From contig QBMB01000007.1 in NCBI GenBank assembly GCA_003241965.1, positions 7,353 through 45,234 of the forward strand: a DNA stretch of 37,882 nt, in the 5' to 3' direction. A program made the translations under genes and the position numbers. Each line of letters starts with the position of its first letter. Position 1 is the first letter of the stretch. Shown in pieces: positions 1,317 through 16,357 of the stretch. The notes under the pieces are model-generated. The model saw nothing but the letters and a program-made list of their open reading frames with translations. It was not told the DNA's origin and ran no database searches. The DNA is from Burkholderiales bacterium. GTDB lineage: Bacteria > Pseudomonadota > Gammaproteobacteria > Burkholderiales > Burkholderiaceae_C.

Positions 1317-2051
1317 ATGACACTGAAGGTACTGATCGTTGACGATGAAGCGCTGGCACGGTCGCGGCTGCGCACGCTGTTGAGCGAATGCAGCGAGCCG
1401 CGCGCCGACGTGGTGGGCGAGGCGGCCAATGCGGTGCAGGCGATGGAGCACATCCAGCGCGGCGGCTGTGATCTGGTGCTGCTGGACATCCACATGCCGG
1501 GGGTGGACGGCATGACGCTGGCCAGGACCCTGCGCGAACTGGCGGCACCACCGGCGGTGGTATTCATCACCGCCTACGCCGAACACGCGGTGCAGGCCTT
1601 TGACCTGGAGGCGGTGGACTACCTGACCAAGCCGGTGCGCCGCGAGCGTCTGCAGCAGGCCCTGCAAAAGGTGCAGCGACTGCGCGCCGACAGCGCGGTG
1701 GACGTGGGCTTGCCCGAGAGCCTGATCATCCAGGAGCGCGGGCGCAGTGAGCGCGTGGCGCTGGCCGACGTGATCTACCTCAAGGCCGAGTTGAAATACA
1801 TCACGGTCCGCACGGCCGACAAGGAACACATTTTTGACGGCGCGCTGAGCGATCTGGAACAGCGTTACGCCCACCTGTTTGTGCGCGTGCACCGCAACGC
1901 CCTGGTGTCGCGCCGCGCGGTGCGTGCCGTTGAAAAGCACAACGATCCGGTCGAGGGTGAGGGCTGGACGGTGCGGCTGGACGGTGTGGACGAGCGCCTG
2001 GCGGTTTCGCGCCGTCAACTGGCGGCGGTTCGTGAAGCGCTGATGAGCTGA
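1317..2051 (+). CDS. algR: LytTR-family response regulator (AlgR type)
   Basis: DNA-binding response regulator of 244 aa. The N-terminal receiver (about 1-120) has the acidic pair Asp9/Asp10, the phosphoacceptor Asp57 in LLDIHMPGVDG, Thr85 and Lys105 (LTKP). The C-terminal LytTR domain (about 135-242) has the usual DVIYLKAELKYITV strand and the FVRVHRNALVSRR recognition segment. It lies 35 nt downstream of the sensor kinase on the same strand and is almost certainly cotranscribed and phosphorylated by it. Many relatives have hemC next; here the next gene is recJ on the opposite strand, after two hairpin repeats. Family and partner assignment are firm; the regulon is not visible from this window. 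Confidence 0.92.
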   Translation: MTLKVLIVDDEALARSRLRTLLSECSEPRADVVGEAANAVQAMEHIQRGGCDLVLLDIHMPGVDGMTLARTLRELAAPPAVVFITAYAEHAVQAFDLEAVDYLTKPVRRERLQQALQKVQRLRADSAVDVGLPESLIIQERGRSERVALADVIYLKAELKYITVRTADKEHIFDGALSDLEQRYAHLFVRVHRNALVSRRAVRAVEKHNDPVEGEGWTVRLDGVDERLAVSRRQLAAVREALMS

Positions 2052-2069: not shown

Positions 2070-2175
2070 GAGGGCGTTTCCGGATGGGGCAACCGGCTCC
2101 GCGAATGTCCTCCGGGGCCTTCGGCCCCTCCCCCTTGATTTCGCTGCGCCGGTCGCCCCATCCGGCAACGCCCTC
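2070..2175 (-). repeat. Nested-hairpin repeat, copy A (minus orientation)
   Basis: Read on the minus strand, a 28-position outer stem (26 Watson-Crick pairs, one G-U, one G-A mismatch) encloses a 3x3 loop, the 5-bp helix GCGAA/TTCGC, an internal loop ATCAAGGGGGA opposite GGAGGACA, and a GC-rich inner hairpin with a GAA triloop. The internal loop and short helix are nearly identical to copies B (2221-2320) and C (16241-16334), whereas the stems differ in sequence. It starts 19 nt after the end of the LytTR regulator and runs against it. Confidence 0.85.
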
Positions 2176-2220
2176 CCTGGCGCACGTACCAAAAAACATC
2201 GACTGCAGACACGCCACTCG

Positions 2221-2320
2221 CTCGTGAGGGTGGTGCGTTCTGCGCAGCGAAATCAAGGAGGAAAACCGGCGAAGCCGGTTTGGGGGACATTCGCGGAGCA
2301 GAGCGCGCCGCCCTCACGAG
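2221..2320 (+). repeat. Nested-hairpin repeat, copy B (plus orientation)
   Basis: Outer stem 2221-2243 pairs with 2298-2320: 23 bp, of which 2231-2310, 2234-2307 and 2238-2303 are U-G wobbles on the plus strand. Then come a 3x3 loop, GCGAA (2247-2251) pairing with TTCGC (2290-2294), and a conserved internal loop with AAGGAGG at 2255-2261 opposite GGGGGACA (2282-2289). The inner 8-bp hairpin is 2263-2281 with a GAA triloop. It lies 45 nt from copy A, in opposite orientation, and 25 nt before the stop of recJ. Confidence 0.85.
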
Positions 2321-2345
2321 CCCGCGAAGGTCCCTGAGTGAGATC

Positions 2346-4082
2346 TCAGATTTCTGCAGCCTCAACCAAAAACCGCACGCGCCGCTGACCCTGCCACTCG
2401 TCCGCGTCCAGGCGAAACGCGATCTTCACACGCTCGGGCAAAGGCTCTGTGTGCCCGAACCAGATGCCGTCCACCGGCTCGCCCTGGTGCTTGAGTTTGA
2501 GCGCCAGATGCTTCTCGCCCACCAGCCGCTGCGACACCACCTGCACCTCTTCGCAGAACACCGGCGGCGCAAAGCCCTGGCCCCACACTTCCTTGTGCAG
2601 CGTGTCCACCAGATCGGCGCGACGGTACTTCGTGTCCAGTGCGCCGTCGGCCTCCATGCGGCGTTGTAGCGTCGCCGCGTCCAGCCATTCGTGGGCCACC
2701 TGCTGCAGCGCGGCCTCGAAGGTCTCCAGGTGCTCTTCGTCGATGGTGCAACCCGCCGCCATGGCATGACCACCGAAGCGCAGCAACACACCGGGGTGGC
2801 GCTTGGCCACCAGATCGAGTGCGTCGCGCAGATGAAAGCCGGCGATCGAGCGACCCGAACCCTTGAGCTCGTTTTCCTTGCCCTCGGCGCCGCTGGCCGC
2901 GAACACGAAGGTGGGCCGGTGCAGCTTGTCCTTCAGGCGCGAGGCCACGATGCCGACCACGCCTTCGTGGAAGTCGGGGTCGAACACCACCAGCGCGGGC
3001 GGGGGCTCCTCGGAATCGTCGAACATCTCCTCGGCCATCTGCAGCGCCTGCTCGCGCATGTCGCCCTCGATCACCTTGCGCTCGCGGTTGATGCCGTCCA
3101 GCGTGCGCGCCAACTCATCCGCGCGCAGCGCGTCGTCGGTGGTCAGGCACTCGATGCCCAGCGTCATGTCGGCCAGGCGCCCGGCGGCGTTCAGGCGCGG
3201 GCCGAGTGCAAAGCCGAAGTCGAATCCGGTGGCCGTGTCCGGCTTGCGCGCGGCCACGTTGAACAAGGCCGTCATGCCCGGTGGCATGGCGCCGGCGCGC
3301 ACACGCTTCAAACCCTGGGCGACCAGGCGGCGGTTGTTGGCGTCGAGCTTGACCACGTCGGCCACGGTGCCCAGCGCCACGAGTGGCAGCAGTGAATCGA
3401 TCTTCGGTTGATTCTGCGCAGTGAACACGCCGCGCTCGCGCAACTCCGCACGCAGCGCCAGCAGCACATAGAACATCACACCCACACCAGCGATGGACTT
3501 GCTTTCGAAGGTGCAGCCGGGCTGGTTGGGGTTCACGATGATGCAGTCCTGCGGCAGCGTGACCACGCCGTCTTTCAACGCAGGCAAGTGGTGGTCGGTC
3601 ACGATCACCTGCAGGCCCAGCTCGCGTGCGGCACGCACGCCGTCCACGCTGGCGATGCCGTTGTCCACCGTCACCAGCACATCGGCACCTTGCGCCTTCA
3701 CCCGCTTCGAGATGGACGGCGTGAGGCCGTAGCCGTCGGTCACGCGGTCGGGCACCAGGTAGTTCACCCGGTCGAAGCCCATCGGCGCGCCGAGCAGGCG
3801 CAGGCCGCGCAGGCCAACCGCGCAGGCGGTGGCACCGTCGCAGTCGTAGTCGGCCACGATACAGATGGACTTGTTCGCCGCCATGGCGTCGGCCAGAGCG
3901 CGGGCAGCGTCTTGTGCGCCCAGCATTTGAGACGGCGGAATCAGGCGGGCCAGTGCGTCGTCGAGTTCGTCGGTGCTGGTGATGCCGCGCGCGGCAAACA
4001 GGCGTGCCAGCAACGGGTGCAGGCCGCCTTGCTCCAGTGCCCAGGCAGCGCGGGGCGGCACGTCGCGGGTGATGATCTTCAT
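2346..4082 (-). CDS. recJ: Single-stranded-DNA-specific exonuclease RecJ
   Basis: 5'-3' exonuclease on single-stranded DNA acting in RecFOR recombination, mismatch and base excision repair. The start MKIITRDVPP at 4082 gives 578 aa, the normal RecJ length; the frame stays open further upstream but that part overlaps the neighbouring gene and looks non-coding. The DHH phosphoesterase motifs are present: ADYDCDG (77-83), VDNGIAS (around 140), TDHH (162-165), and the DHHA1 signature GGHAMAAG further on, followed by the OB domain. The start codon overlaps the end of the upstream RpfE-type gene by 4 nt (ATGA), so the two are translationally coupled. The same recJ-rpfE pairing is known from Xanthomonas and Ralstonia. 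Confidence 0.96.
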   Translation of the reverse strand: MKIITRDVPPRAAWALEQGGLHPLLARLFAARGITSTDELDDALARLIPPSQMLGAQDAARALADAMAANKSICIVADYDCDGATACAVGLRGLRLLGAPMGFDRVNYLVPDRVTDGYGLTPSISKRVKAQGADVLVTVDNGIASVDGVRAARELGLQVIVTDHHLPALKDGVVTLPQDCIIVNPNQPGCTFESKSIAGVGVMFYVLLALRAELRERGVFTAQNQPKIDSLLPLVALGTVADVVKLDANNRRLVAQGLKRVRAGAMPPGMTALFNVAARKPDTATGFDFGFALGPRLNAAGRLADMTLGIECLTTDDALRADELARTLDGINRERKVIEGDMREQALQMAEEMFDDSEEPPPALVVFDPDFHEGVVGIVASRLKDKLHRPTFVFAASGAEGKENELKGSGRSIAGFHLRDALDLVAKRHPGVLLRFGGHAMAAGCTIDEEHLETFEAALQQVAHEWLDAATLQRRMEADGALDTKYRRADLVDTLHKEVWGQGFAPPVFCEEVQVVSQRLVGEKHLALKLKHQGEPVDGIWFGHTEPLPERVKIAFRLDADEWQGQRRVRFLVEAAEI

Positions 4083-5074
4083 AGGGTTTCCAGGATCTTC
4101 CATGCCGGGGCGTTGCCCAGCAGGTTCTTGATGAGTCGTCCGGCGCGCGCCACGGCGCCGCGCGGAGCGTTGGTGAAGCGCTGCGCAGTGCGCTCGCCAC
4201 ACAGGGTGAGTGTGACCGGCTCGCCACGGCGCACGCTTTCCAGCAGGTTTTTGATCTCGTTTGCGTCGAGGCTCGTCCACGCGTGCTTCCAGCGGGCCCA
4301 GTCGGCCTGCAGGGCTGCGCTGCGCAGTTGGTCCGGCATGGTTGGGGCTGGTTGCAACGACGTCGGGTGGTCGATGGCGCCCGCGCCACTGAGCCAGAAC
4401 CCGTTGACCGGGTGCAGGCGCAGCGCCTCGCGCGCATCAAATGCGGGGTGTGTATAGAACAACATTTGCGCCTCGCTCTGCAGGCGCTTGAGCAACTGGC
4501 CACCGGCGGGGTTGGCCGAGCTGTCGGTCATCCAGGCTTCCACCGAACGACCGCCCACGCGGTCCAGGCTGGCGCAGGCGATGCCGCGCAGCACCTCGCC
4601 GCTGGCGTGCCAGCGTGTGGCGGACTCGTAGCGCAGCGTGATGCCGTCTTCGTCGCAATAGGGCGCCAGCGCGTCGAAGAGGGGGCGGGCGTGTTCGTCG
4701 GTGAGGCCGAGCTGGTCGCCGGGCAGCAGCGACACCTGCTCCATGCCCACCTGAAAGTGGCAAGGCGTGAACCAGGCTTGGGGCAGTTCGGGCGTGCTGC
4801 TGTGTGCGGCGGCCCAAGGCAAGAGCCCATCGGGGTAGGCCGAGCCATCGGCCCGCACCAGGCCCATGGCCTGCGCCAGCGCACGTTCGTGCGGTGCGCT
4901 CAGGCTGTGGTCACTTGCGCTGTCGGTGTGCACGGGTTGCAGTTCGGCCAGCAGGGCGGTGAGGTGGGGCAGTTGCAAGCCCGGCATGAGAGCCCGGCAG
5001 GCGGGGTCGCTGGCGCTGGCGAAGGGAACCAGCAGGTGGGCAGAAGGCTCAGAGGCCATGTGGGAAGCGGGCAT
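4079..5074 (-). CDS. RpfE-type conserved protein (phosphoglycerate-mutase-like family)
   Basis: 331-aa cytoplasmic-looking protein of the family annotated as RpfE-type regulatory protein or uncharacterised phosphoglycerate-mutase-like protein, common beside recJ in beta- and some gammaproteobacteria. No signal peptide or membrane segment is visible. Recognisable stretches include LLPWAAAHS and the block around TPCHFQVGMEQVSLL, which in relatives recurs as a family signature. I see no classical catalytic motif that would prove an enzymatic role. The start is uncertain: ATG at 5074 or 5059, neither with a clear Shine-Dalgarno sequence. It overlaps recJ by 4 nt and is divergent from lolC with about 46 nt between starts, so both promoters share that short gap. 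Function unknown; family call moderate. Confidence 0.7.
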   Translation of the reverse strand: MPASHMASEPSAHLLVPFASASDPACRALMPGLQLPHLTALLAELQPVHTDSASDHSLSAPHERALAQAMGLVRADGSAYPDGLLPWAAAHSSTPELPQAWFTPCHFQVGMEQVSLLPGDQLGLTDEHARPLFDALAPYCDEDGITLRYESATRWHASGEVLRGIACASLDRVGGRSVEAWMTDSSANPAGGQLLKRLQSEAQMLFYTHPAFDAREALRLHPVNGFWLSGAGAIDHPTSLQPAPTMPDQLRSAALQADWARWKHAWTSLDANEIKNLLESVRRGEPVTLTLCGERTAQRFTNAPRGAVARAGRLIKNLLGNAPAWKILETL

Positions 5075-5120
5075 GACGCGATTGTCGGGGATGCCACAAT
5101 GCCCCGCAGGACCTCACCGC

Positions 5121-6377
5121 ATGCAAACCCCCTACGAACTCATTCTCGGCTGGCGCTACACCCGCGCCGGCCGCGCCACCCGGCGCAACGGCTTCATCTC
5201 CTTCATCTCGGGCGTGTCCATGCTGGGCATTGCGCTGGGCGTGGCCGCACTCATCATCGTGCTCTCGGTCATGAACGGCTTCCAGAAGGAAGTGCGCGAC
5301 CGCATGCTCGGTGTGCTGTCGCACATCGAGGTGTTCGAGCCCGGAGGCCAGGCCATTCCCAACCTGGCCGACACCTTGGCAAAGATCGAGCGCCACCCCG
5401 AGGTGGTGGGCGCTGCGCCGTTTGTGGGCGCCCAGGCGCTGATTGCGCGCGGCGAAGACATGAAGGGTGCGCTGGTGCGCGGCATCGACCCGGCGCTGGA
5501 GCCGAAGGTGACGGACCTTGCAGCCCAACTGGCCGACACGGTGCTGCCGCGCCTTGTGCCGGGCGAATTCGGTGTGATCCTGGGCGGCGAACTCGCGCGC
5601 AGCCTGGGCGTGATCGCGGGCGACAGCGTCACGCTGATCGCGCCCAGCGGTCAGGTGACTCCGGCCGGCGTGGTGCCGCGCATCCGCCAGATGACGGTGG
5701 TGGGCACCTTCGATTCGGGCCACTACGAATACGACTCCGCGCTGGCCCTGCTGCACCAGGAAGACGCGGCGCGCATTTTCCGCGTGGAAGGACCGACGGG
5801 GGTGCGCGTGAAGATCAAGGACCTGCACCAGGCGCGCGAGGTGGCCGTGTCCATCGCCGCCGACCTCGACCCCGGCCTGCTCGTGCGCGACTGGACGCGC
5901 CAGAACCGCACCTGGTTCGCCGCGGTGCAGCTCGAAAAACGCATGATGTTCATCATCCTCACGCTCATCGTGGCGGTGGCGGCGTTCAACCTCGTGTCCA
6001 CGCTGGTGATGACAGTGACCGACAAGCGCGCCGACATCGCCATCCTGCGCACGCTGGGGGCGAGTCCGCAAAGCATCATGGGCGTCTTCATGGTGCAGGG
6101 CGCGATGGTGGGCATCATCGGCACCGGCGCGGGCCTGTTGTTGGGCCTGGGTATCGCCTTCAACATCGACACCCTGGTGCCCGCGCTGGAGCGGCTGCTG
6201 GGTGCGAGCTTCCTGCCGCAGGACATCTACCTCATCAGTCGCATGCCCAGCGACCCGCAGCAGGCCGACATCCTGCCGGTGGCGGTGATCTCGCTGGTGC
6301 TCTCGTTCCTGGCCACCATTTACCCAAGCTGGCGCGCGAGCCGCGTCAATCCTGCCGAAGCCCTTCGCTATGAGTGA
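5121..6377 (+). CDS. lolC: Lipoprotein-releasing ABC transporter permease LolC/LolE family
   Basis: Inner-membrane permease of the LolCDE complex that extracts mature outer-membrane lipoproteins and hands them to LolA. The 418-aa protein starts at MQTPYELILGWRYTRAG (5121), the typical LolC/E beginning; the longer open frame upstream is antisense to the RpfE-type gene. There is one N-terminal membrane helix (about 25-50) ending in VMNGFQKEVRDRMLG, a periplasmic domain, then three helices (about 276-298, 322-345, 385-405) and the terminal WRASRVNPAEALRYE, all standard for the MacB/FtsX-like permease fold. The ATPase gene lolD follows 90 nt downstream. Only one permease gene is present here, so this may be a LolF-like single permease acting as a homodimer; that is inference. 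Confidence 0.94.
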   Translation: MQTPYELILGWRYTRAGRATRRNGFISFISGVSMLGIALGVAALIIVLSVMNGFQKEVRDRMLGVLSHIEVFEPGGQAIPNLADTLAKIERHPEVVGAAPFVGAQALIARGEDMKGALVRGIDPALEPKVTDLAAQLADTVLPRLVPGEFGVILGGELARSLGVIAGDSVTLIAPSGQVTPAGVVPRIRQMTVVGTFDSGHYEYDSALALLHQEDAARIFRVEGPTGVRVKIKDLHQAREVAVSIAADLDPGLLVRDWTRQNRTWFAAVQLEKRMMFIILTLIVAVAAFNLVSTLVMTVTDKRADIAILRTLGASPQSIMGVFMVQGAMVGIIGTGAGLLLGLGIAFNIDTLVPALERLLGASFLPQDIYLISRMPSDPQQADILPVAVISLVLSFLATIYPSWRASRVNPAEALRYE

Positions 6378-6384
6378 TTTCATG

Positions 6385-6454
6385 ACCCCCACGCTCCGCC
6401 GCTGCGCGGGTCGCTGCCCCCCGAGGGGGCGTGTTTCGCCTTGGGGCGGCCCGG
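6385..6454 (-). repeat. GC-rich intergenic repeat, family 2, copy 1
   Basis: The 90-nt gap between lolC and lolD is filled by an element that, read on the minus strand, matches 14026-14103 almost throughout: GGGCCGCCCCAAG at one end, a central CCCCCTCGGGGGGCAGCGA and a CGCGCAGCGG...AGCGTGGGGG end. The centre can fold as a CCCCC/GGGGG hairpin. I associate this sequence with intergenic regions of Comamonadaceae, from memory only. Lying inside an operon, it is transcribed as part of the lolCD message. Confidence 0.8.
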
Positions 6455-6467
6455 CGGCGAAACCTCT

Positions 6468-7142
6468 ATGACACAAGCAGTACTTCAGGCCAAGGGCCTC
6501 ACCAAACGCTTCACCGAAGGCCGGCTCGACGTCACCGTGCTCACCGGTGTGGACCTCACGGTGCGCGCGGGCGAAACCGTGGCCATCGTCGGGGCTTCGG
6601 GCTCGGGCAAGAGCACCTTGCTGCACCTGCTGGGCGGACTGGACGCGCCCACCAGCGGCAGCGTTCAGCTCATGGGGCAGTCGATGTCGGGCCTGAGCGC
6701 GACGCAGCAGGGCGTGTTGCGCAACCAGCACCTGGGTTTCGTCTACCAGTTCCACCACCTGCTGCCCGAGTTCAGCGCGCGCGACAACGTGGCCATGCCG
6801 CTGTGGATCCGCCGCATGCCGCGCGCCGATGCCGCCGAACAGGCGCGCAAGATCCTCACGCGGGTGGGGCTGGCCGATCGCCTGAGCCACCGGCCGGCCG
6901 AGCTCTCGGGTGGTGAGCGTCAACGCGTGGCCATTGCGCGGGCGCTCGTCACGCAGCCCGCGTGTGTGCTGGCCGATGAGCCCACCGGTAACCTGGACCG
7001 CGCCACCGCAGAAGGGGTGTTCCAGCTGATGCTGGAACTGGCTCGCGATCAGGGCACGGCCTTCATCGTCGTCACCCACGACGAAACCTTGGCCGCGCGC
7101 TGCAACCGCGTCTTGCGGTTGACCGCCGGTGTACTGACCTAA
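6468..7142 (+). CDS. lolD: Lipoprotein-releasing ABC transporter ATP-binding protein LolD
   Basis: Cytoplasmic ATPase that powers LolC/E-mediated lipoprotein release. 224 aa from [15 protein letters not shown]. Walker [10 protein letters not shown] (42-50), Q-loop in [12 protein letters not shown] (the [12 protein letters not shown] string is typical of LolD among MacB-type ATPases), signature LSGGE (146-150), Walker B CVLADEP (about 166-172) and the H-loop VVTHDE. The 6468 start was preferred over ATG at 6441 because the latter lies in repeat-derived sequence. It is cotranscribed with lolC. Its stop overlaps the stop of the convergent META-domain gene by 4 nt. Confidence 0.95.
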
Positions 7143-7555
7143 GGTTTGGTTCGCGAAAAGCGCAGGGGTTTGTCCAGCCCCTGCACGTGCATCAGCATGG
7201 TCGTGCCCCGCACTTCCAGCCGCTGTGCCTTCTGCAGCGCGTCCAGGTAGCGCGCTTCCTGCTCGTCCACCGCTGGCGCGCACGCCATGCGTGTGCCGCC
7301 GAGCTGACCCAGCGCAATGCGGTCCTGCATCAGCGTGTAGGAGCCAAAGAAGCGGTTGCACGAGCTGTTGCCGGCTACGCGCCCGGCTTCGGGAAAGGCC
7401 AGCGTGGCCTGCGCGCGGTCGAGCACGCCGCGCCCACCCATGTCTTCGAGCCGCCATTCGCTGCCCACCAGCGGTGCAGCGCCGGGCGCGCCGGGCAGGG
7501 CGCAGGCGGTGAGGGCGAGCAACACGGGCGCGGCGAACCAGGAGAGGCGTGACAT
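7139..7555 (-). CDS. META domain-containing lipoprotein (HslJ-like)
   Basis: Small envelope lipoprotein, 138 aa from ATG 7555. The N-terminus is a lipoprotein signal peptide with lipobox LTAC (Cys18). The body is one META/HslJ domain: [14 protein letters not shown] at its start, the [20 protein letters not shown] block and [12 protein letters not shown], which are the conserved features of the fold. META-domain proteins are linked in other bacteria to novobiocin resistance (HslJ) and envelope stress, with no proven biochemical activity. The frame remains open upstream but overlaps the TatD start region. The gene is divergent from tatD (68 nt between starts) and convergent with lolD. Family call firm, role unknown. 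Confidence 0.88.
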
Positions 7556-7623
7556 GGGGGGTCCTTTCAGGATGGGGCCGGGCCCTGAGAGAGCTTGTCG
7601 GCACAATGGTCCGTTATACCGCC

Positions 7624-8469
7624 ATGTGGATCGACACACACTGCCATCTGGATGCGCCTGAGTTCGGCGCTGATCACGCGCTCGCGTTGAGCCTGCGCGA
7701 GCGTGCGGCCGCGCTCGGCGTGGGTCTGTGTGTGATCCCGGCGGTGGAGCGCTCCAACTTCGACACCGTGCGCCAGCTCGCACACCGCCTGGGTGACGCC
7801 TATGCCCTGGGCATCCACCCGCTGTTCGTGCCGCGTGCGCAAGACACCGACCTGGCTGCGCTGGACGCTGCGCTGAACGAGCACCGCGACGACCCGCGCC
7901 TGGTGGCGGTGGGCGAGATCGGGCTCGACTTTTTCGTGCCTGCGCTGTGCACGCCCGAGATGCGCGAGCGCCAGGCGTTTTTCTACCGTGCGCAGTTGCG
8001 CCTGGCGCGCAAACACGGTCTGCCGGTGATCGTGCACGTGCGGCGCAGCGCCGACCAGTTGCTCAAGCACCTGCGCGAGCTGCCCACAGGCGGAGGCATC
8101 GCACACGCGTTCAACGGCAGTGCACAGCAGGCACAGGCGTTTGTCGGGCTGGGCTTCAAGCTGGGTTTTGGTGGGGCGTGCACCTTCGAGCCCGCGCGGC
8201 AGTTGCGCCGCCTGGCCGCCGAGCTGCCGCTCTCGGCCCTGGTGCTGGAGACCGATGCGCCCGACATTCCGCCGCACTGGCTCTACGCCACGGCTGCCGA
8301 GCGTTCCGCCGGGCGGGCGCAGGGCGTCAACAGTCCGGCCGAGTTGCCTCGCATCGGTGCGGTGGTGGCTGAGCTGCGCGGCCTGCCAGTTGACGCGTTG
8401 ATGAAGGCCACCACAGAAAACGCGCTGGCGGCGTTGCCGCGACTGGCCGCACTGGTGCAAGCTTCGTGA
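7624..8469 (+). CDS. TatD family metal-dependent hydrolase/DNase
   Basis: Metal-dependent nuclease of the TatD amidohydrolase family, 281 aa from MWIDTHCHLDAP. The metal ligands are in place: His6 and His8 (THCH), Glu98 (GEIGLD), His138 (VIVHVR), His161 (AHAFNGS) and Asp211 (LETDAPDIPP). Relatives have 3'-5' DNase activity and take part in DNA repair and turnover; YjjV is probably the nearest E. coli paralogue, judged by eye. ATG 7624 places the HxH motif where the family has it; an in-frame ATG lies at 7606. The downstream glycosylase starts with GTG overlapping the stop codon (GTGA), so the two are coupled, which makes a small DNA-repair unit plausible. Confidence 0.93.
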   Translation: MWIDTHCHLDAPEFGADHALALSLRERAAALGVGLCVIPAVERSNFDTVRQLAHRLGDAYALGIHPLFVPRAQDTDLAALDAALNEHRDDPRLVAVGEIGLDFFVPALCTPEMRERQAFFYRAQLRLARKHGLPVIVHVRRSADQLLKHLRELPTGGGIAHAFNGSAQQAQAFVGLGFKLGFGGACTFEPARQLRRLAAELPLSALVLETDAPDIPPHWLYATAAERSAGRAQGVNSPAELPRIGAVVAELRGLPVDALMKATTENALAALPRLAALVQAS

Positions 8470-9020
8470 GCCGATTGCAAGGTTTGCCGCCGGTGCTGGA
8501 CGCCAACACGCGGGTGCTGGTGCTGGGCAGTTTTCCGGGGGTGGCTTCATTGCGCGCGCAGCAGTACTACGGCCACCCGCAGAACCAGTTCTGGAAGATT
8601 CTGGGCGCGTTGTGGGGTTTGCCACTGCCGGCCATGGCTTACCCCGAGCGCGTGGCTGCTGCGTTGGCGCATGGCCTGGGCGTGTGGGATGTGTACGGCG
8701 CTTGTGAACGCGAAGGCAGCCTGGACGCGAACATCCAGAACGCGGAGCTCAACGATTTTGCGTGGGTGCTGCGCTCGTGCCCGCTGCTGGAGGCGATTGC
8801 GCACAACGGTGGCGAGAGCTTTCGCCATGCGCGGCATACGGAGAAGCTGGGGGTGCCGGTGTACAAGCTGCCGTCCACGAGTCCGGCGAATGCGGGCTGG
8901 AGCTTTGATCGAAAGTTGGCGGCGTGGTCGGAGGTGTTGAGTCGGCATGCGGCAGCTCCGTTCGGGCAGCAGGAGCCGCCGGAGAATGCAAAGCGCCGTG
9001 TCCATAATGAATTCCCTTGA
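8466..9020 (+). CDS. Hypoxanthine/uracil-type DNA glycosylase (UDG superfamily)
   Basis: 184-aa member of the uracil-DNA glycosylase superfamily, closest to the family 6 hypoxanthine-DNA glycosylases that remove deaminated adenine. Motif 1 is LGSFPGVAS (20-28), followed by YYGHPQNQFWKILG (34-47), Asn114 in the HNGG turn, and the motif 2 region KLPSTSPANAG (134-144). Start GTG 8466 overlaps the TatD stop by 4 nt; no better start exists. The C-terminal 25 residues after the fold are likely a disordered tail. Substrate (hypoxanthine versus uracil) is inferred from motif style and would need an assay. Confidence 0.88.
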   Translation: MSRLQGLPPVLDANTRVLVLGSFPGVASLRAQQYYGHPQNQFWKILGALWGLPLPAMAYPERVAAALAHGLGVWDVYGACEREGSLDANIQNAELNDFAWVLRSCPLLEAIAHNGGESFRHARHTEKLGVPVYKLPSTSPANAGWSFDRKLAAWSEVLSRHAAAPFGQQEPPENAKRRVHNEFP

Positions 9021-9068
9021 AAACGCATCCATCAACATGCACTACCCATCCCGTGAAGGACGTCTGAC

Positions 9069-9851
9069 GTGAAAGAAGGCGCCAACGCAGCCGCCCGCAA
9101 ACGAAGCCCGGTTCAAACCCTGCCCGAGGTGACCATCTCCGAAGACAGCGAGGTGCGCTTTCTGCACCTGGGCACCGAGTGGATCCAGGGCTCCATGCTG
9201 CTGGACGCGCCGTTCGACATCGAGCTCGACTACGTCCAGCGCATGATGGCCTGGCTGCTGTTTGTCGAACCCGACTCGGTGGGCAAACGCCGCGCCCTGC
9301 AGCTCGGCCTGGGGTCGGCCGCGCTCACCAAGTTCTGCTTCAAGAAACTGCGCATGGACACCACCGCCATCGAGATCAACCCGCAGGTGGTGGTGGTGTG
9401 CCGCAGCTGGTTCAAGCTGCCGGCCGACGGCCCCAAGCTGCACGTGGTGCTGGCCGATGCGGGCGAGGAAATCCGCCGCGCCGACCACCTGGGCGCCTAC
9501 GACGCACTGCAGGTGGACCTGTACGACCACGAGGCCGCCGCACCCGTGCTGGACAGCCCCGACTTCTACGCCGACTGCCGCAACGCCCTCACCGACGACG
9601 GCTGCCTCACGGTCAACCTGTTCGGGCGCGATGCGAGCTACGAGCGCTCGCTGCAGAGCCTGTGCGCCGCCTTTGGCGATGACGCCGTGTGGGCCTTCAA
9701 GCCCACGCGCGAAGGCAACACCGTGGTTCTGGCCCAGCGCACACCCAGCCGGCCCACCCGCATGCAGCTGCTGGCGCGGGCCGAAGCGGTGCAGGAACGC
9801 TGGGGCCTGCCGGCGGTCAAGTGGATGAAACTGTTCAAACCCGTTTCCTGA
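9069..9851 (+). CDS. Spermidine synthase-like methyltransferase-fold protein
   Basis: 260-aa soluble protein with the Rossmann-like fold of spermidine synthases. The nucleotide-binding glycine motif LQLGLGSAAL lies at 77-86, the acidic residue of strand 2 at Glu102 (AIEINP), Asp130 (VLADAG) binds the adenine side in relatives, and DALQVDLYDHEA holds the aspartate at 150. The N-terminal beta domain of true SpeE is short here, so polyamine synthesis is not assured; many such orphan SpeE-like proteins have unknown substrates. Start is GTG 9069, preceded by GAAGGA at 9055-9060 at a proper distance. Seven nucleotides separate it from the GspE-like gene, so they are probably cotranscribed. Confidence 0.85.
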   Translation: MKEGANAAARKRSPVQTLPEVTISEDSEVRFLHLGTEWIQGSMLLDAPFDIELDYVQRMMAWLLFVEPDSVGKRRALQLGLGSAALTKFCFKKLRMDTTAIEINPQVVVVCRSWFKLPADGPKLHVVLADAGEEIRRADHLGAYDALQVDLYDHEAAAPVLDSPDFYADCRNALTDDGCLTVNLFGRDASYERSLQSLCAAFGDDAVWAFKPTREGNTVVLAQRTPSRPTRMQLLARAEAVQERWGLPAVKWMKLFKPVS

Positions 9852-9858
9852 AACGACC

Positions 9859-11667
<1,809 letters not shown>

Positions 11668-11675
11668 AGCAGCGC

Positions 11676-12068
11676 TCAGTCCCCTGAGAGCCCGTGCCTG
11701 AACTGCTCTGCGGCATCGATCAGATCCCACAGTTCCTGCCCCAGCGCCTCTGCGTCGAGGTCGATATCCACCACGCGCTGGTACAGCGCCACGTTCTCGG
11801 CCAGTGAGATGCCCAGACGATCTGAATGACTCAGGTGGGTGTTGGCCAGCAACAGCGCTTCACACAGGGCGGCGCGCGGGCCACTGTGGCGGGGCAGGGT
11901 GCAGATGTGGGCCTGCATCACCAGGGTGGGTTCGCGGTCGTGGGGGCGCAGCACCACCAGCGTGTCATTCACGTGCAGGAGCGTGGAGCCCTGGCGCGAA
12001 TCGGTCCAGGCTTTCAGCAGGGTGTCGATGCGTTCGACGGGAGGGGTGGAACGGGGAGAAGGCGGCAT
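11676..12068 (-). CDS. CesT-like (type III secretion chaperone fold) small protein
   Basis: 130-aa protein from ATG 12068, chosen because AGGA lies 8 nt upstream; a GTG at 12101 would add 11 residues. The order of elements fits CesT/Tir-chaperone proteins: an N-terminal helix (VERIDTLLKAW), two beta strands (STLLHVNDTLVVLRP), a strand TLVMQAHICTLP, a helix ALCEALLLANTHL, strands around RLGISLAENVALYQRVVD and a C-terminal helix ALGQELWDLIDAAEQF. This is a topology match by eye, not a motif match. It is convergent with the orphan GspE-like ATPase, 8 nt apart. No secretion apparatus is visible nearby. It could instead be an unrelated small acidic protein. Confidence 0.55.
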   Translation of the reverse strand: MPPSPRSTPPVERIDTLLKAWTDSRQGSTLLHVNDTLVVLRPHDREPTLVMQAHICTLPRHSGPRAALCEALLLANTHLSHSDRLGISLAENVALYQRVVDIDLDAEALGQELWDLIDAAEQFRHGLSGD

Positions 12069-12248
12069 GTGAGCAATCCTGTGAAACGTGTTCGGCGCCA
12101 CCTCAGGCCGGGTGCGCAGGGGGCTGTTGCACAGGTTATGGATTTGCCGGCGCGTGGGGTGTGCGTGCAGGGCTTCATCAGTTTGAAGTCATGCGTGCGA
12201 CAGGAATGCCTGGGCGAACGGCATGAGACATGCCCTGATGCGCAGCCC

Positions 12249-12273
12249 CCGATCGGACGATGCCGATAATCGG
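12249..12273. promoter_or_regulatory. Cluster of ATCGG/CCGAT half-sites before EamA gene
   Basis: The palindrome CCGATCGG (12249-12256) is followed by CCGAT (12263-12267) and ATCGG (12269-12273), just upstream of the ATG at 12277. The 12-mer ATCGGACGATGC occurs twice, 17 nt apart (12252-12263 and 12269-12280). This arrangement could be an operator or a local duplication; no protein is known to bind it. Confidence 0.35.
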
Positions 12274-12276
12274 ACG

Positions 12277-13194
12277 ATGCGCGCCGCTCCCATTCCTCAT
12301 CTCGCCACCGGATTGCTGCTCGCAGGAGCAGGCTCTATCGCCTTCAGCGGCAAGGCCATCATCGTGAAGCTGGCGTACCGCCACGGCGTGGATGCGGTCA
12401 CGCTGATCATGTACCGCATGTTGTTCGCCCTGCCGCTGTTTCTGGCACTGGCCTGGTGGGCCACCTACCGCCAAGGTGGTGCTGCCAAAGCACCCCTCAC
12501 CCGCAGCGATTGGCTGGGCATCCTGGGACTGGGCTTCACCGGTTATTACCTCGCCAGCTTTCTGGATTTCTGGGGCTTGCAGTACATCACCGCCAGCCTG
12601 GAGCGGCTCATCTTGTACCTCAACCCCACTCTGGTGCTGGTGCTGGGCTGGGTGGTTTACAAACGACGCATCACGCGCCTGCAGGCCATCGCGATGGCGG
12701 TGAGTTACGGCGGCGTGTTGCTGGTGTTCGGGCATGAGGCTGGTTTGCAGGGGCCCAACGCGCTGCTGGGCGCCGCGCTGGTGTTCGGCAGTGCCATCAG
12801 CTACGCCATCTACCTTGTGTACAGCGGCGAGCTGGTGCAGCGACTGGGTTCGCTCAGGCTGGTGGGGCTGGCCACCAGCGTGGCCTGTGTGTTGTGCCTG
12901 GTGCAGTTTGTTTTGTTGCGCCCCATGAGCGCGGCGCTGGTGGCACCCGAGGTGATCTGGCTCTCGGTGCTCAACGCCACCCTGTGCACCTTTGCGCCGG
13001 TGCTGATGGTGATGATGGCCATCGAGCGCATCGGCTCGGGCCTGGCGGCGCAGACCGGCATGGTCGGCCCGATGTCGACCATCGTCATGGGCGTGGTGAT
13101 TCTCGGTGAGCCGTTCAACGGCTGGATCGTGGTGGGCACGGTGCTCGTGCTCTCCGGTGTGTTTCTGGTCACGCGCTTTGGCCGCGCCAGCTGA
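12277..13194 (+). CDS. EamA/DMT-family transporter
   Basis: Inner-membrane drug/metabolite transporter superfamily protein, 305 aa, with about ten hydrophobic helices in two EamA repeats: the first from LLLAGAGSIAFSGKAIIVK to the region near residue 150, the second from about 165 to 300, ending with VLVLSGVFLVTRF. Conserved features include the SYGGVLLVFG helix and the proline-containing GPMSTIVMGVVILGEPF helix near the C-terminus. Start ATG 12277 precedes the first helix directly; an upstream ATG at 12223 would add 18 polar residues and cannot be excluded, as neither has a strong ribosome-binding site. The substrate cannot be deduced. The SDR gene follows 23 nt downstream and may share its transcript. 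Confidence 0.9.
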   Translation: MRAAPIPHLATGLLLAGAGSIAFSGKAIIVKLAYRHGVDAVTLIMYRMLFALPLFLALAWWATYRQGGAAKAPLTRSDWLGILGLGFTGYYLASFLDFWGLQYITASLERLILYLNPTLVLVLGWVVYKRRITRLQAIAMAVSYGGVLLVFGHEAGLQGPNALLGAALVFGSAISYAIYLVYSGELVQRLGSLRLVGLATSVACVLCLVQFVLLRPMSAALVAPEVIWLSVLNATLCTFAPVLMVMMAIERIGSGLAAQTGMVGPMSTIVMGVVILGEPFNGWIVVGTVLVLSGVFLVTRFGRAS

Positions 13195-13217
13195 TCATTT
13201 TTTTCAGGAGACTTTTC

Positions 13218-14015
13218 ATGGATCTGGGTATCAAGGGCAAATGGGCGCTGGTGTGTGGCGCGAGCAAGGGCTTGGGGCTGGGCTGTGCGCAGGCGCTGGC
13301 GGCCGAAGGCGTGCATGTGGTGCTGGTGGCGCGCGGTGTGCGCGACCTTGAGGCTGCTGCGCAGGCGTTGCAGACCGCCGCGCCCGATGTGAAGGTGCTC
13401 GCGGTGGCGGCCGACATCACAACGCCCGAGGGCCGCGCGGCGGCGATGTCGGTGGCCGGTGGTCCTGGCACGGCGTTCGACATCGTGGTGAACAACGCGG
13501 GTGGTCCACCCCCTGGTGATTTCCGCGCCTGGGACCGCGACGTGTGGATCAAGGCGCTCGACGCCAACATGCTCACGCCCATCGAACTCATCAAGGCCAC
13601 GGTGGACGGCATGGCGCAGCGCGGCTTTGGCCGCATCGTCAACATCACCTCGGGCGCGGTGAAGGCGCCGATCGACATCCTGGGCCTGTCCAACGGTGCG
13701 CGCAGTGGTCTCACGGGTTTTGTGGCCGGCGTGGCGCGCAGCCCGCTGGCCGCTCAGGGCGTCACGGTCAACAACCTGTTGCCTGGTGCCTTCGACACCG
13801 ACCGCCTCAAGACCACGCTGGCCGGTGCGGCCGAAAAAACCGGCCAGTCGGTGGACGCGATTGCCGACGCGCGGCGCAAGAACATCCCGGCCAAACGCTT
13901 CGGCACCTCGCAGGAGTTCGGCGCGATCTGCGCGTTTCTCTGCAGCGTGCACGCGGGGTACATCACCGGCCAGAACGTGCTGGCCGACGGCGGTGCCTAC
14001 CCCGGCACTTTCTGA
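13218..14015 (+). CDS. SDR-family oxidoreductase lacking the catalytic Tyr/Lys
   Basis: 265-aa protein with the short-chain dehydrogenase fold. The cofactor motif GASKGLGLG is at 14-22, the VNNAGG loop at 91-96, Asn117 in LDANML and the serine Ser145 in NITSG. Counting the usual spacing from Ser145, the catalytic tyrosine position is Ser158 and the lysine position Arg162 (LGLSNGAR), so the YxxxK motif is absent. Such proteins are grouped by others as FabG-like divergent SDRs. The C-terminal LADGGAYPGTF is the normal SDR ending. A good Shine-Dalgarno sequence (AGGAGA) precedes ATG 13218. Whether it is a reductase, or uses a different chemistry, is open. Confidence 0.88.
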   Translation: MDLGIKGKWALVCGASKGLGLGCAQALAAEGVHVVLVARGVRDLEAAAQALQTAAPDVKVLAVAADITTPEGRAAAMSVAGGPGTAFDIVVNNAGGPPPGDFRAWDRDVWIKALDANMLTPIELIKATVDGMAQRGFGRIVNITSGAVKAPIDILGLSNGARSGLTGFVAGVARSPLAAQGVTVNNLLPGAFDTDRLKTTLAGAAEKTGQSVDAIADARRKNIPAKRFGTSQEFGAICAFLCSVHAGYITGQNVLADGGAYPGTF

Positions 14016-14025
14016 AGAGTGCGAT

Positions 14026-14103
14026 CCGGCGCCGGGCCGCCCCAAGCCGGATCAGCCCCCTCGGGGGGCAGCGAACCTCGCGCAGCGGGGAAGCGTGGGG
14101 GCT
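14026..14103 (+). repeat. GC-rich intergenic repeat, family 2, copy 2
   Basis: Same element as 6385-6454 in opposite genomic orientation: GGGCCGCCCCAAG, then CCCCCTCGGGGGGCAGCGA, then CGCGCAGCGGGGAAGCGTGGGGG. AGCCCCC near 14053 can pair with GGGGGCT ending at 14103, enclosing the centre. It fills the gap between the convergent SDR and EamA genes and ends at the latter's stop codon, so it may act as a bidirectional transcription end, although no T-run is present. Confidence 0.8.
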
Positions 14104-15039
14104 CTAGCGTCGCGACGACACCAGAATCCCGCCCACGATCAGCACGAATCCAGCAAAGTGGTAGGTCTGGGGCGGCTCGCGCAGCAGCGTGGCCGACAGG
14201 AGTGCGGCGAACAATGGCGTGAGGTTGGAGAAGATGGCGGCGGTGGCCGGGCCCACGCGTGCCACGGCAGCGCCCCAGCTTCGGTAGGCCAGCAGCGAGG
14301 GCCCCACCGCCACATACACCAGCCCTGCCACCAGGGGCCAACCCCACTGGATGGCGCTCGTGCCCTCGGGACGCGCGGGCAGCATGAACCACTCGCCTGC
14401 CGTGAACGCCCCCGACCAGATCAGGCCGAACACCACCTGGGCGAGCAGAAACGCAGCCCAGTCCGCCTTGATGGCCGCGGGCTCATTGGCCGGCGGGCGT
14501 GCGAGCAGCCAGCTGTACCAGGCCCAGGCCAGGGCTGCGAGCAACACCAGCAGATCGCCCGGCACCAGCTGCACCGACAGAAGGCCACCCAGATCGCCGC
14601 GCGCGATCACCACGGCCACGCCGCAGAGCGACATGAACGCACCCAGCGCCGCACGCCGAGAGATGGGAACGCCGTAGAACACGCGCCCCATGATCAGCAT
14701 CCACACCGGGATGCTCGAAGCCACCAGCGTCACGTTCAGCGGGGTGGAGGTCTTGAGCGCCATGTACTGCAGCGTGTTGTACATGCCCACACCCAGCAAA
14801 CCCAGCAAGGCGAAGCGCCGCCAGTGGGGCCACAGTTCGCTGCCCGGGCGCAGCACCCAACCCGCCAGGGGCAGCAGCATCAGCAGGGCCAGCACCCAGC
14901 GCAGGAAATTGAGCGTGACCGGGGGCACCACGCCCTGCATGAGTCGGCCCACCACGGCGTTGCCCGCCCACATGAGCGGCGGGATCAGCAGCAGGACGAT
15001 GGTGGAGGGCGTGAGACGGGGCGTGGAAGGCGCAGACAT
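14104..15039 (-). CDS. EamA/DMT-family transporter
   Basis: 311-aa membrane transporter with about ten helices in two EamA domains: roughly residues 12-145 (beginning TIVLLLIPPLMWAGNAVVGR, with the typical NFLRWVLALLMLLPL second helix) and 160-308 (ending FAGFVLIVGGILVSSRR). The MYNTLQYMALKTSTPLNVTLVAS segment and the ATAAIFSNLTPLFAALLSATLL segment are standard for the EamA family. It is distinct in sequence from the transporter at 12277-13194, so not a recent duplicate. It is divergent from the quinone oxidoreductase gene (126 nt between starts) and convergent with the SDR. Substrate unknown. Confidence 0.91.
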   Translation of the reverse strand: MSAPSTPRLTPSTIVLLLIPPLMWAGNAVVGRLMQGVVPPVTLNFLRWVLALLMLLPLAGWVLRPGSELWPHWRRFALLGLLGVGMYNTLQYMALKTSTPLNVTLVASSIPVWMLIMGRVFYGVPISRRAALGAFMSLCGVAVVIARGDLGGLLSVQLVPGDLLVLLAALAWAWYSWLLARPPANEPAAIKADWAAFLLAQVVFGLIWSGAFTAGEWFMLPARPEGTSAIQWGWPLVAGLVYVAVGPSLLAYRSWGAAVARVGPATAAIFSNLTPLFAALLSATLLREPPQTYHFAGFVLIVGGILVSSRR

Positions 15040-15165
15040 CGGCTGGACTGTAGCAACCCGCGCTTGTCCGTCGGCCGCTGGGGGGCGAAGCGGTGTCGCT
15101 CAGGCGATCCGGCGCTTTCATGGCAGGATTCAAGGGCATTGATTCAACAACGAGGAGACCCACCC

Positions 15166-16161
15166 ATGAGTTCACAAGAATCCCGCGCCGTGCGCATCCA
15201 TGCCGCTGGCGGCCCTGAGCAACTGGTCATCGACACCCTGAGCGTGGGCGACCCCGGCCCTGGGCAGGTGCGCATCCGCCACCACGCGGTGGGACTGAAC
15301 TACATCGACGTGTACCAGCGCAGCGGCCTCTACCCGTTCCCCATGCCGCTGTCGCTGGGCATGGAAGGCGCGGGTGTGATCGAGGCGGTGGGCGAGGGCG
15401 TCACACACCTCAAGACCGGCGACCGTGCAGCTTACGCCGCCAACCCGCCGGGCAGCTACTGCGACGTGCGCGTGATGCCCGCCATGAACGTGTGCCAGCT
15501 GCCCGACGCCATCGACTTCGAGACTGGCGCAGCCATGATGCTCAAGGGCTTGACCGCGCAGTACCTGCTCAAGCGCTGCCGCCCGGTGGAAGGCCTGGAT
15601 CCGGGCGACTTCGTGCTGTTCCACGCAGCCGCTGGCGGCGTGGGTCTGATCGCCTGCCAGTGGGCCAAGGCACTGGGTCTGCAGCTCATCGGCACGGCGG
15701 GCTCGGACGAGAAATGCAAGCTGGCCCTGGAGCACGGCGCCAGCCACGCCATCAACTACCGCACCGAAGACTTTGTCGCGCGGGTGAAGGAGATCACCAA
15801 TGGCCAGGGCGTGAAAGCGGTGTACGACTCGGTGGGCAAGGACACGTTCGAGAAGTCGCTTGATTGCCTGCGCCCCTTCGGTTTGATGGCCAGCTTTGGC
15901 AACGCATCGGGTCCGGTGGCGCCTTTTGCGCCCGGCATCCTCGGCCCCAAGGGCTCGCTGTACGTCACGCGCCAGACGCTGTTCTCACACATCACCAGCC
16001 GCGAGCGCACGCAAGCCATGGCGGACGATCTGTTTGCGGTGGTTGAAGGTGGGCAGGTGAAGATCCGCATCGACCAGCGTTTTGCACTGACCGATGTGCG
16101 CAAGGCGCATGAAAGTCTTGAGGCTCGCGCGACTACGGGGTGCACTGTCTTGTTGCCCTGA
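15166..16161 (+). CDS. qor: NADPH:quinone oxidoreductase, zeta-crystallin type
   Basis: Medium-chain dehydrogenase/reductase lacking zinc ligands, 331 aa from ATG 15166 (CGAGGAGA upstream serves as Shine-Dalgarno sequence). The sequence has the quinone reductase signature: GLNYIDVYQRSGLYP (43-57), the GMEGAGVIEAVGEGV block, the NADPH-binding HAAAGGVGLIACQWAKALG (153-171), DSVGKDTF and the C-terminal TGCTVLLP. Enzymes of this group reduce quinones by one-electron transfer with NADPH and protect against redox stress. An in-frame open stretch extends far upstream on the same strand but is antisense to the EamA gene and not coding. Downstream is a copy of the nested-hairpin repeat. Confidence 0.93.
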   Translation: MSSQESRAVRIHAAGGPEQLVIDTLSVGDPGPGQVRIRHHAVGLNYIDVYQRSGLYPFPMPLSLGMEGAGVIEAVGEGVTHLKTGDRAAYAANPPGSYCDVRVMPAMNVCQLPDAIDFETGAAMMLKGLTAQYLLKRCRPVEGLDPGDFVLFHAAAGGVGLIACQWAKALGLQLIGTAGSDEKCKLALEHGASHAINYRTEDFVARVKEITNGQGVKAVYDSVGKDTFEKSLDCLRPFGLMASFGNASGPVAPFAPGILGPKGSLYVTRQTLFSHITSRERTQAMADDLFAVVEGGQVKIRIDQRFALTDVRKAHESLEARATTGCTVLLP

Positions 16162-16240
16162 GCTTTTCGTGCCTGCGGGGTTGGTCGCCTGAGAGCACAG
16201 GGCGATCGACTCCAAGGTTTGAGAACCAGCACGCCTTGGG

Positions 16241-16334
16241 TCGGGGCGTGATGGTGTTCTGCGCAGCGAAATCAAGGAGGAGGGGCCGCAGGCCCCGGGG
16301 GACATTCGCGGAGCAGAGCACCGTCATGCCCCGA
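16241..16334 (+). repeat. Nested-hairpin repeat, copy C (plus orientation)
   Basis: Outer stem 16241-16262 pairs with 16313-16334: 22 bp with wobbles 16248-16327, 16252-16323 and 16257-16318, all G-U on the plus strand. GCGAA (16266-16270) pairs with TTCGC (16305-16309). The internal loop ATCAAGGAGGA opposite GGGGGACA is identical to copy B. The inner stem GGGGCC/GGCCCC (16282-16296) has a GCA triloop. It lies between the convergent qor and aminotransferase genes. Confidence 0.85.
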
Positions 16335-16357
16335 TCCCGCGAGGTAGAGGCGCGAAG

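What the first reader, a model, noticed from the sequence alone, without database searches (positions are those of the whole stretch)
2070..16334. Three-copy nested-hairpin element with covarying stems around an invariant AAGGAGG internal loop
Copies at 2070-2175 (minus), 2221-2320 (plus) and 16241-16334 (plus) share one architecture: an outer stem of 22-28 bp, a 3x3 loop, GCGAA/TTCGC, a conserved internal loop (ATCAAGGAGGA opposite GGGGGACA; copy A differs at two bases) and an inner stem. Outer and inner stem sequences differ between copies yet stay paired. All seven wobble positions (3 in B, 3 in C, 1 in A) are G-U when read on the strand carrying AAGGAGG, and would be A-C on the other. This points to selection on an RNA of one polarity, for example a structured RNA, a ribosome- or protein-binding decoy, or a mobile repeat whose RNA matters. 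I do not recognise a named family.
Basis: partly seen in the sequence, partly recalled or inferred. Interest (0 to 1): 0.8.

Follow-up and report, generated by a model that had tools for sequence, protein, structure and literature searches.

The report
Back-to-back hairpin repeats between bacterial genes
Many gaps between genes in a large family of bacteria carry a pair of outward-facing hairpins whose stem letters change but stay paired, and whose shape is kept on only one of the two DNA strands, which points to a working RNA or single-stranded DNA that I could not match to a known family.

Summary
The three window copies belong to a set of 25 in this genome (8 divergent pairs, 9 singles). 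The same model matches 137 of 299 family genomes; named carriers include Hydrogenophaga, Variovorax, Rhodoferax and Ramlibacter. Stems covary strongly (24 of 32 pairs change on both sides; 0 of 500 shuffles). The full unit is two hairpins, back to back and pointing outward, about 48 nt apart, with A/C-rich outward tails; all 71 pairs examined have this order, with one exception seen outside the family. It resembles BIME/REP repeats, but lacks a GTAG tag and U-tract and any link to Y1 transposases. A CsrA decoy is refuted. I favour a mobile, BIME-like unit acting as a two-way transcript-end hairpin, with single-stranded-DNA mobility as close rival. RNA versus ssDNA is not settled. No Rfam match; no report in the paper listings I saw.

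The parts
2070..2175 (-). copy A: two-tier hairpin, A-type partner of a pair; variant core AAGGGGG/GGAGG
   Evidence: covariance-model match G000:C155:9426-9523
2176..2219 (.). spacer between the two outward-facing hairpins
   Evidence: 68 of 71 unique pairs have spacers of 35-59 nt, measured between model ends
2220..2321 (+). copy B: two-tier hairpin, B-type, next to the recJ 3' end
   Evidence: match G000:C155:9572-9673
2129..2144 (-). conserved 5' core of copy A (GCGAA + purine-rich loop)
2247..2262 (+). conserved 5' core of copy B
2322..2345 (+). outward flank of copy B up to the recJ stop codon
   Evidence: outward flanks of this family are A/C-rich on average
16238..16337 (+). copy C: single (unpaired) B-type hairpin between convergent genes
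   Evidence: match G000:C155:23591-23688
16266..16281 (+). conserved 5' core of copy C
1317..2051 (+). neighbour: LytTR response regulator, stop 18 nt before copy A
2346..4280 (-). neighbour: recJ (ORF as listed; true start not determined), stop 24 nt beyond copy B

Best explanation
A family-wide, BIME-like repeat unit. Its full form is two ~100-nt hairpins placed back to back, each pointing outward, with a ~48 nt spacer and an A/C-rich, T-poor tail beyond each hairpin. The outward-reading strand of each hairpin is the one that folds and is under selection (shown by covariation and wobble polarity). Proposed mechanism (inferred): a transcript entering from either side folds the far hairpin in its favoured polarity, so that a very stable two-tier hairpin followed by an unstructured C-rich tail sits at the transcript's end. 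There it marks or protects 3' ends and limits read-through in both directions, through a protein that recognises the invariant purine-rich core. Units lie near stop codons and between genes of operons, as REP/BIME do. Copies also come and go at orthologous sites, so the unit spreads by an unknown enzyme.
For: Covariation: 98.1% paired cells, 24 of 32 pairs changed on both sides, 0/500 shuffles. G.U:A.C 481:26 over 210 copies, equal for hairpins read with (127:4, 54 copies) or against (132:4, 55 copies) tandem genes; control without the model 201:7 over 94 copies. The sense strand folds better in 205 of 210 copies with RNA and 210 of 210 with DNA parameters. All 71 unique pairs examined are divergent, 68 with 35-59 nt spacers. 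Where a gene's 3' end adjoins a hairpin, the median distance is 39 nt (108 cases). Outward flanks of 30 nt: A+C 66-68%, T 10% (33 and 52 flanks), against 48% and 17% in 168 control 3' UTR stretches. Paired copies show tighter polarity than singles (323:11 vs 158:15, p=0.018), as if the pair were the working unit. In place between an ABC substrate-binding gene and its permease gene in a genus I take to be Variovorax: 12 copies of each hairpin, 63 G.U to 1 A.C together. Purine swap in the loop: A.G 251, G.A 30, other 13 of 294.
Against: Among copies between tandem genes the hairpin antisense to the mRNA is kept as strictly as the sense one, so the model needs antisense transcripts to matter widely. 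No U-tract follows (0 of 206) and no transcript or termination was observed. Pairs are not concentrated between convergent genes (12 of 65). The GNA triloop (at least 197 of 294) is best known as an ultra-stable DNA loop. Mismatches other than A.C are commoner than A.C (126 cells against 26; 30 against 1 at the orthologous site), so pairing is not perfect. Counts over related copies are not independent events.
Confidence: 0.4

Rival explanations
1. Single-stranded-DNA mobile element: the sense hairpins are ssDNA recognition structures for an unidentified transposase or recombinase, as REP hairpins are for TnpA-REP. Polarity reflects recognition of one strand at each end.
For: Composite inverted pair like REP/iREP; presence and absence at orthologous sites; GNA triloop enriched (at least 197 of 294, vs 34 of 255 control triloops on either strand; the control used stems of 6 bp or more, so it is not matched in stem length), a loop reported to make very stable DNA mini-hairpins (PMC4686876, passages); sense strand better in 210 of 210 copies with DNA parameters.
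Against: No link to Y1 transposases (103/34/119/43, p=0.79); a genome with at least 13 copies (G086) has neither a Y1 nor a Y2 transposase match. No target-site duplication or cargo found. Polarity is kept in place across species at one site, which a passive insertion would not need.
Confidence: 0.3
2. Two divergent small RNAs, each a ~100-nt hairpin, made from promoters in the spacer and acting in trans.
For: Polarity outward and independent of neighbouring genes; spacer length constrained.
Against: Spacers hold no sigma-70-like promoter beyond shuffles (mean best score 6.21 vs 6.28 over 68 pairs, both strands; other promoter types not tested); no U-tract; outer stems differ widely between copies, odd for a trans-acting RNA.
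Confidence: 0.1
3. Decoy for ribosomes or CsrA through AAGGAGG/GGA motifs.
For: GG-purine-GGA conserved on both sides of the loop.
Against: CsrA matches in only 8 of 299 family genomes, none in this genome, and among the 137 element-bearing genomes only one, below the family cut-off. The loop's A and G trade places with the other side, which a fixed sequence decoy would not need.
Confidence: 0.03
4. Passive palindromes kept perfect by hairpin-templated repair, with wobbles left by mutation.
For: Stem middles differ between this genome and four relatives at the recJ site although the RecJ C-terminus is 96-99% identical (G012, G015, G019, G054).
Against: Such repair would leave G.T and A.C equally; observed 481:26. 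Invariant unpaired core and purine swap.
Confidence: 0.05
5. Ordinary intrinsic terminator pair.
For: Hairpins near stop codons.
Against: No run of four T within 15 nt beyond the hairpin in 206 copies; 24-bp stem with two conserved internal loops.
Confidence: 0.03

Closest known systems
BIME / REP (repetitive extragenic palindromes) and TnpA-REP (RAYT)
   Same: Many intergenic copies; composite of two palindromes in inverted orientation with a linker; one strand recognised (definition from the introduction of PMC8266576). Placement near gene ends and between genes of operons is recalled for REP.
   Different: ~100-nt two-tier hairpin instead of 20-50 nt; no GTAG; variable covarying outer stem; conserved purine-rich internal loop; no association with Y1 transposases.
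REPINs
   Same: Inverted pair treated as one mobile unit (recalled; only the start of the abstract of PMC3116915 seen).
   Different: Different size and core; no RAYT link.
Integron attC sites (recalled)
   Same: Conserved folded structure with variable sequence and one active strand.
   Different: Conserved part is internal here, not at the ends; cassettes and integrases were not searched for.
Bidirectional transcription terminators (recalled)
   Same: Would serve transcripts from both sides.
   Different: No U-tract; two separate polarised hairpins.

Membership tests
REP/BIME of TnpA-REP systems | Short (20-50 nt) palindrome | tested here: not met
   Single hairpin ~90-110 nt with an outer stem of about 24-25 bp
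REP/BIME of TnpA-REP systems | GTAG (or CGTC) tag beside the palindrome | tested here: not met
   GTAG in 3 (5' side) and 5 (3' side) of 206 copies, about 11 expected at equal base frequencies; CGTC on the 5' side in 19 of 206
REP/BIME of TnpA-REP systems | Two palindromes in inverse orientation with a linker | tested here: met
   71 of 71 unique pairs divergent; one same-direction neighbour pair outside the family
REP/BIME of TnpA-REP systems | Associated TnpA-REP gene | tested here: not met
   Fisher p=0.79 over 299 genomes for Y1_Tnp; own RAYT-like gene 73.8 bits against a cut-off of 80 and on a contig without copies
Intrinsic terminator | U-tract after the hairpin | tested here: not met
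   0 of 206
Known Rfam family | Score above gathering threshold | tested here: not met
   0 families; weak matches, mostly miRNA precursors, far below threshold around copies A and B
CsrA-binding sponge RNA | CsrA in the host | tested here: not met
   8 of 299 family genomes, none in this genome
Structured functional RNA | Covarying base pairs | tested here: met
Structured functional RNA | Transcript of the predicted strand | not testable with these tools
   no RNA data available

The most novel reading that the evidence does not exclude
A new class of polarised, two-headed nucleic-acid element: each unit carries two fast-evolving hairpins that are selected as single strands of opposite DNA strands, with a non-Watson-Crick core read by an unknown protein, spread through Burkholderiales without needing a Y1 or Y2 HUH transposase. 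It would be either a new bidirectional transcript-end system or a new single-strand-based mobile element.
Probability: 0.35. Interest if true: 0.82.

Novelty: new variant of a known kind. Interest (0 to 1): 0.64.

Why it matters
A structured element with a very clear strand-polarity signal matches in nearly half of the sampled genomes of a large family (137 of 299), with no Rfam model and no report in the paper listings I saw. It gives a direct test of whether BIME-like repeats act as folded RNA or as folded ssDNA: the two strands of one unit carry opposite predictions. The conserved core points to a protein that is not yet known.

Tried and rejected
Rfam at gathering threshold over the window and at a relaxed threshold around copies A and B: nothing real. 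Y1 (REP-type) transposase association: rejected. Y2 transposase: 88 of 299 genomes; it cannot be required, since G086 carries at least 13 copies without a match. CsrA sponge: rejected. Cargo gene between three widely spaced hairpin pairs: by eye no ORF that looks like a transposase (not scanned against a family library). Sigma-70 promoter in the spacer: none above shuffles. Phage carriage: no match in viral contigs by exact pattern or in phage records by blastn with one unit. Plasmids: with a Variovorax unit 4 records, with the window unit 3, all Variovorax replicons of 1.2-2.5 Mb (on three of them gave no annotation). My early idea that copies sit only beside the 3' end of an opposing gene held for most copies in this genome but not in relatives (pairs: convergent 12, tandem 43, divergent 10 of 65 with both neighbours called). 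Target-site duplications were not established; a short inverted motif (GCCCYGAA-like) beyond both hairpins occurs in only 4 of 71 pairs and on at least one side in 19. A gene-call summary, made before masking the hairpins, was replaced. Paper searches whose listings (6 to 20 papers each) showed no report of this element. Terms for Variovorax, Acidovorax and relatives do not occur in the main texts of PMC4666352, PMC3733652 and PMC12306157 (these papers were searched for terms only).
Full report
Observation. As RNA each folds into a long outer stem, a 3x3 loop, a 5-bp helix, a purine-rich internal loop and a small inner hairpin, at z -8.14 to -8.21 against 200 shuffles. Copy C's stem runs a few bp beyond the given coordinates and holds a fourth G.U. 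In the three outer stems the only wobbles are G.U on the AAGGAGG strand; copy A has one further mismatch.

Copies in this genome. The exact 5' core occurs 13 times and the reversed control 0 times. A covariance model from those 13 (alignment, model) finds 25 separate places (of the 35 rows, 7 are the opposite strand of listed copies and 3 are weak): 8 divergent pairs and 9 singles. On the 13 copies 98.1% of pair cells are standard pairs, 24 of 32 pairs show changes on both sides, and no shuffle of 500 reaches any of the five measures; sliding the partner by 1-3 columns drops pairing to 33-44%.

Distribution. With the same model 137 of 299 genomes of the family match at E<=1e-4, in 77 of 141 genera. 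Only 13 candidates per genome were scored, so copy numbers there are lower bounds. I looked at the sequence of the best match in 30 genomes returned as loci (the printout missed two of them, which one search covers); the weak single matches in other genomes were not inspected. In an order-wide sample 13 of 300 genomes match at E<=1e-6; 8 of them lie outside the family, in two other families. In the eight alignments shown from those, the middle helix GCGAA/TTCGC is replaced by GCGAA/TGAGC, with a tandem G.A in place of two Watson-Crick pairs, and the next A is a G; the same form is also seen inside the family.

Polarity. Over 210 unique copies (the 30 lowest rows were dropped, all of them the opposite strand of kept rows) the 24-bp outer stems hold 4362 Watson-Crick pairs, 481 G.U, 26 A.C and 126 other mismatches. 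Because model-based alignment could favour G.U, I repeated the count on 94 copies chosen by core letters alone, reading 20 bp outward without gaps: 201 G.U, 7 A.C, 58 other mismatches. Among copies between tandem genes the bias is the same for hairpins on the mRNA strand (127:4, 54 copies) and on the opposite strand (132:4, 55 copies). It is weaker in singles (158:15) than in paired copies (323:11; p=0.018). Many wobbles are shared by descent, so the counts are not independent events. The sense strand is predicted more stable by about 10 kcal/mol as RNA (better in 205 of 210) and also with DNA parameters (210 of 210).

Core. Over 294 unique copies found by a loose core pattern, the middle helix takes several forms (GCGAA/TTCGC 210, GCGGC/GCCGC 39, GCGAA/TGAGC 27, GCGAC/GTCGC 7, others 11). 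The purine pair inside the loop is A.G in 251, G.A in 30, A.A 7, C.G 5 and G.G 1. At least 197 terminal loops are GNA triloops, against 34 of 255 control triloops counted on either strand (control stems of 6 bp or more, so not matched in stem length). GNA loops are described as giving very stable DNA mini-hairpins (PMC4686876, passages). This is why I leave RNA versus ssDNA open.

Unit. All 71 unique pairs examined are divergent, 68 with 35-59 nt between model ends and three with 96-146 nt; no other order was found within 400 nt in those loci. Two listed places looked like exceptions. In G148 two same-direction copies turned out to belong to two neighbouring divergent pairs; in G661, outside the family, two same-direction copies 29 nt apart are a real exception. 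The two hairpins of a pair are of different sequence types in 21 of 22 pairs from named Variovorax loci; the 22nd is cut by a contig end. In other genera the two types are less clear by eye. In Variovorax one type (GATCACG-like) tends to lie next to the upstream gene's stop (by eye). My own simple gene caller (GC3-based, not a trained one) gives for 65 of 71 pairs with both neighbours called: tandem 43, convergent 12, divergent 10; where a gene's 3' end adjoins a hairpin the median distance is 39 nt (108 cases). Beyond each hairpin the outward strand is A/C-rich and T-poor (T 10%, A+C 66-68%; 33 flanks toward gene 3' ends, after dropping those closer than 30 nt, and 52 toward 5' ends), against T 17% and A+C 48% in 168 control 3' UTR stretches.

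Gain and loss. Of 30 loci downstream of recJ in the genus, 12 could not be oriented by my script; of the other 18, six show the pair, one a single, one a cut hairpin, three a hairpin running into a contig end, two another repeat (G028, G041) and five none. In four species with a RecJ C-terminus 96-99% identical to this one (G012, G015, G019, G054) the outer stems differ from those here. At the ABC-transporter site the 30 loci show the pair, a single or partial unit, other palindromic repeats, or a short gap without any. So the unit comes and goes; how is unknown.

Partners tested. Y1 transposase: 103 genomes with both, 34 with element only, 119 with Y1 only, 43 with neither (p=0.79). Y2: 88 of 299. 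G086 carries at least 13 copies with neither. CsrA: 8 of 299, not in this genome, and in one of the 137 element-bearing genomes, below the family cut-off. The own genome's one Y1 gene, RAYT-like, scores 73.8 bits against a cut-off of 80 and lies on a contig without copies.

Comparison. The nearest kind is BIME/REP (definition from the introduction of PMC8266576). Inverse orientation with a linker is met. Size, GTAG tag and TnpA-REP association are tested and not met, so I do not file it as a REP. Rfam has nothing above threshold in the window. The paper searches named in Tried and rejected showed no description. REP-like stabilisation of mRNA between genes of an operon (malE-malF) and bidirectional terminators are recalled, not read here.

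Verdict. Structure, covariation, polarity and unit architecture are shown. That the sense strand works as a transcript-end hairpin in both directions is my preferred inference (0.4), with ssDNA mobility (0.3) next. Strand-specific 3'-end mapping would decide.

Noticed in passing
L101, L104 (recJ 3' flank of G028, G041); L259, L260, L263, L269, L270, L274: A different palindromic repeat family (with AAGGGGGCAACACC and GCCGGTTCCGCGGTGTT-like pieces or their complements) occupies the same intergenic spots as the hairpin unit.
   Followed up: no
L251, L256, L268, L273 and L262, L265, region between the ABC substrate-binding and permease genes: Two further unrelated palindromic repeats (GCCGAACGCAGAAGG-like and CCGTTCGGGCTGAGCCTGTCGAAGC-like) sit at this one site: it looks like a hot spot for large hairpins downstream of a substrate-binding protein gene.
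   Followed up: partly
L249, L254, L261 (hairpin next to the substrate-binding gene): Three species share a hairpin whose 3' arm was partly replaced (ATTCGCTTCGCC...), breaking the inner part of the stem while the outer part stays paired.
   Followed up: no
L287 (G661:C1:691800-693600), 766-869 and 899-1004: Two same-direction copies 29 nt apart in a genome outside the family, the one exception seen to the divergent order.
   Followed up: partly
L074 (G000:C107): One REP-associated tyrosine transposase-like gene beside an ORF I recognise (recalled, not scanned) as glutamate-synthase-like; 222 of 299 family genomes have a Y1 match, without correlation to the element.
   Followed up: partly
L189 (MAG named Stagnimonas): A pair of the elements on a contig of a MAG whose label I recall as a gammaproteobacterium; binning error or transfer.
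   Followed up: no
family-wide: CsrA is almost absent from this family: 8 of 299 genomes have a match.
   Followed up: no
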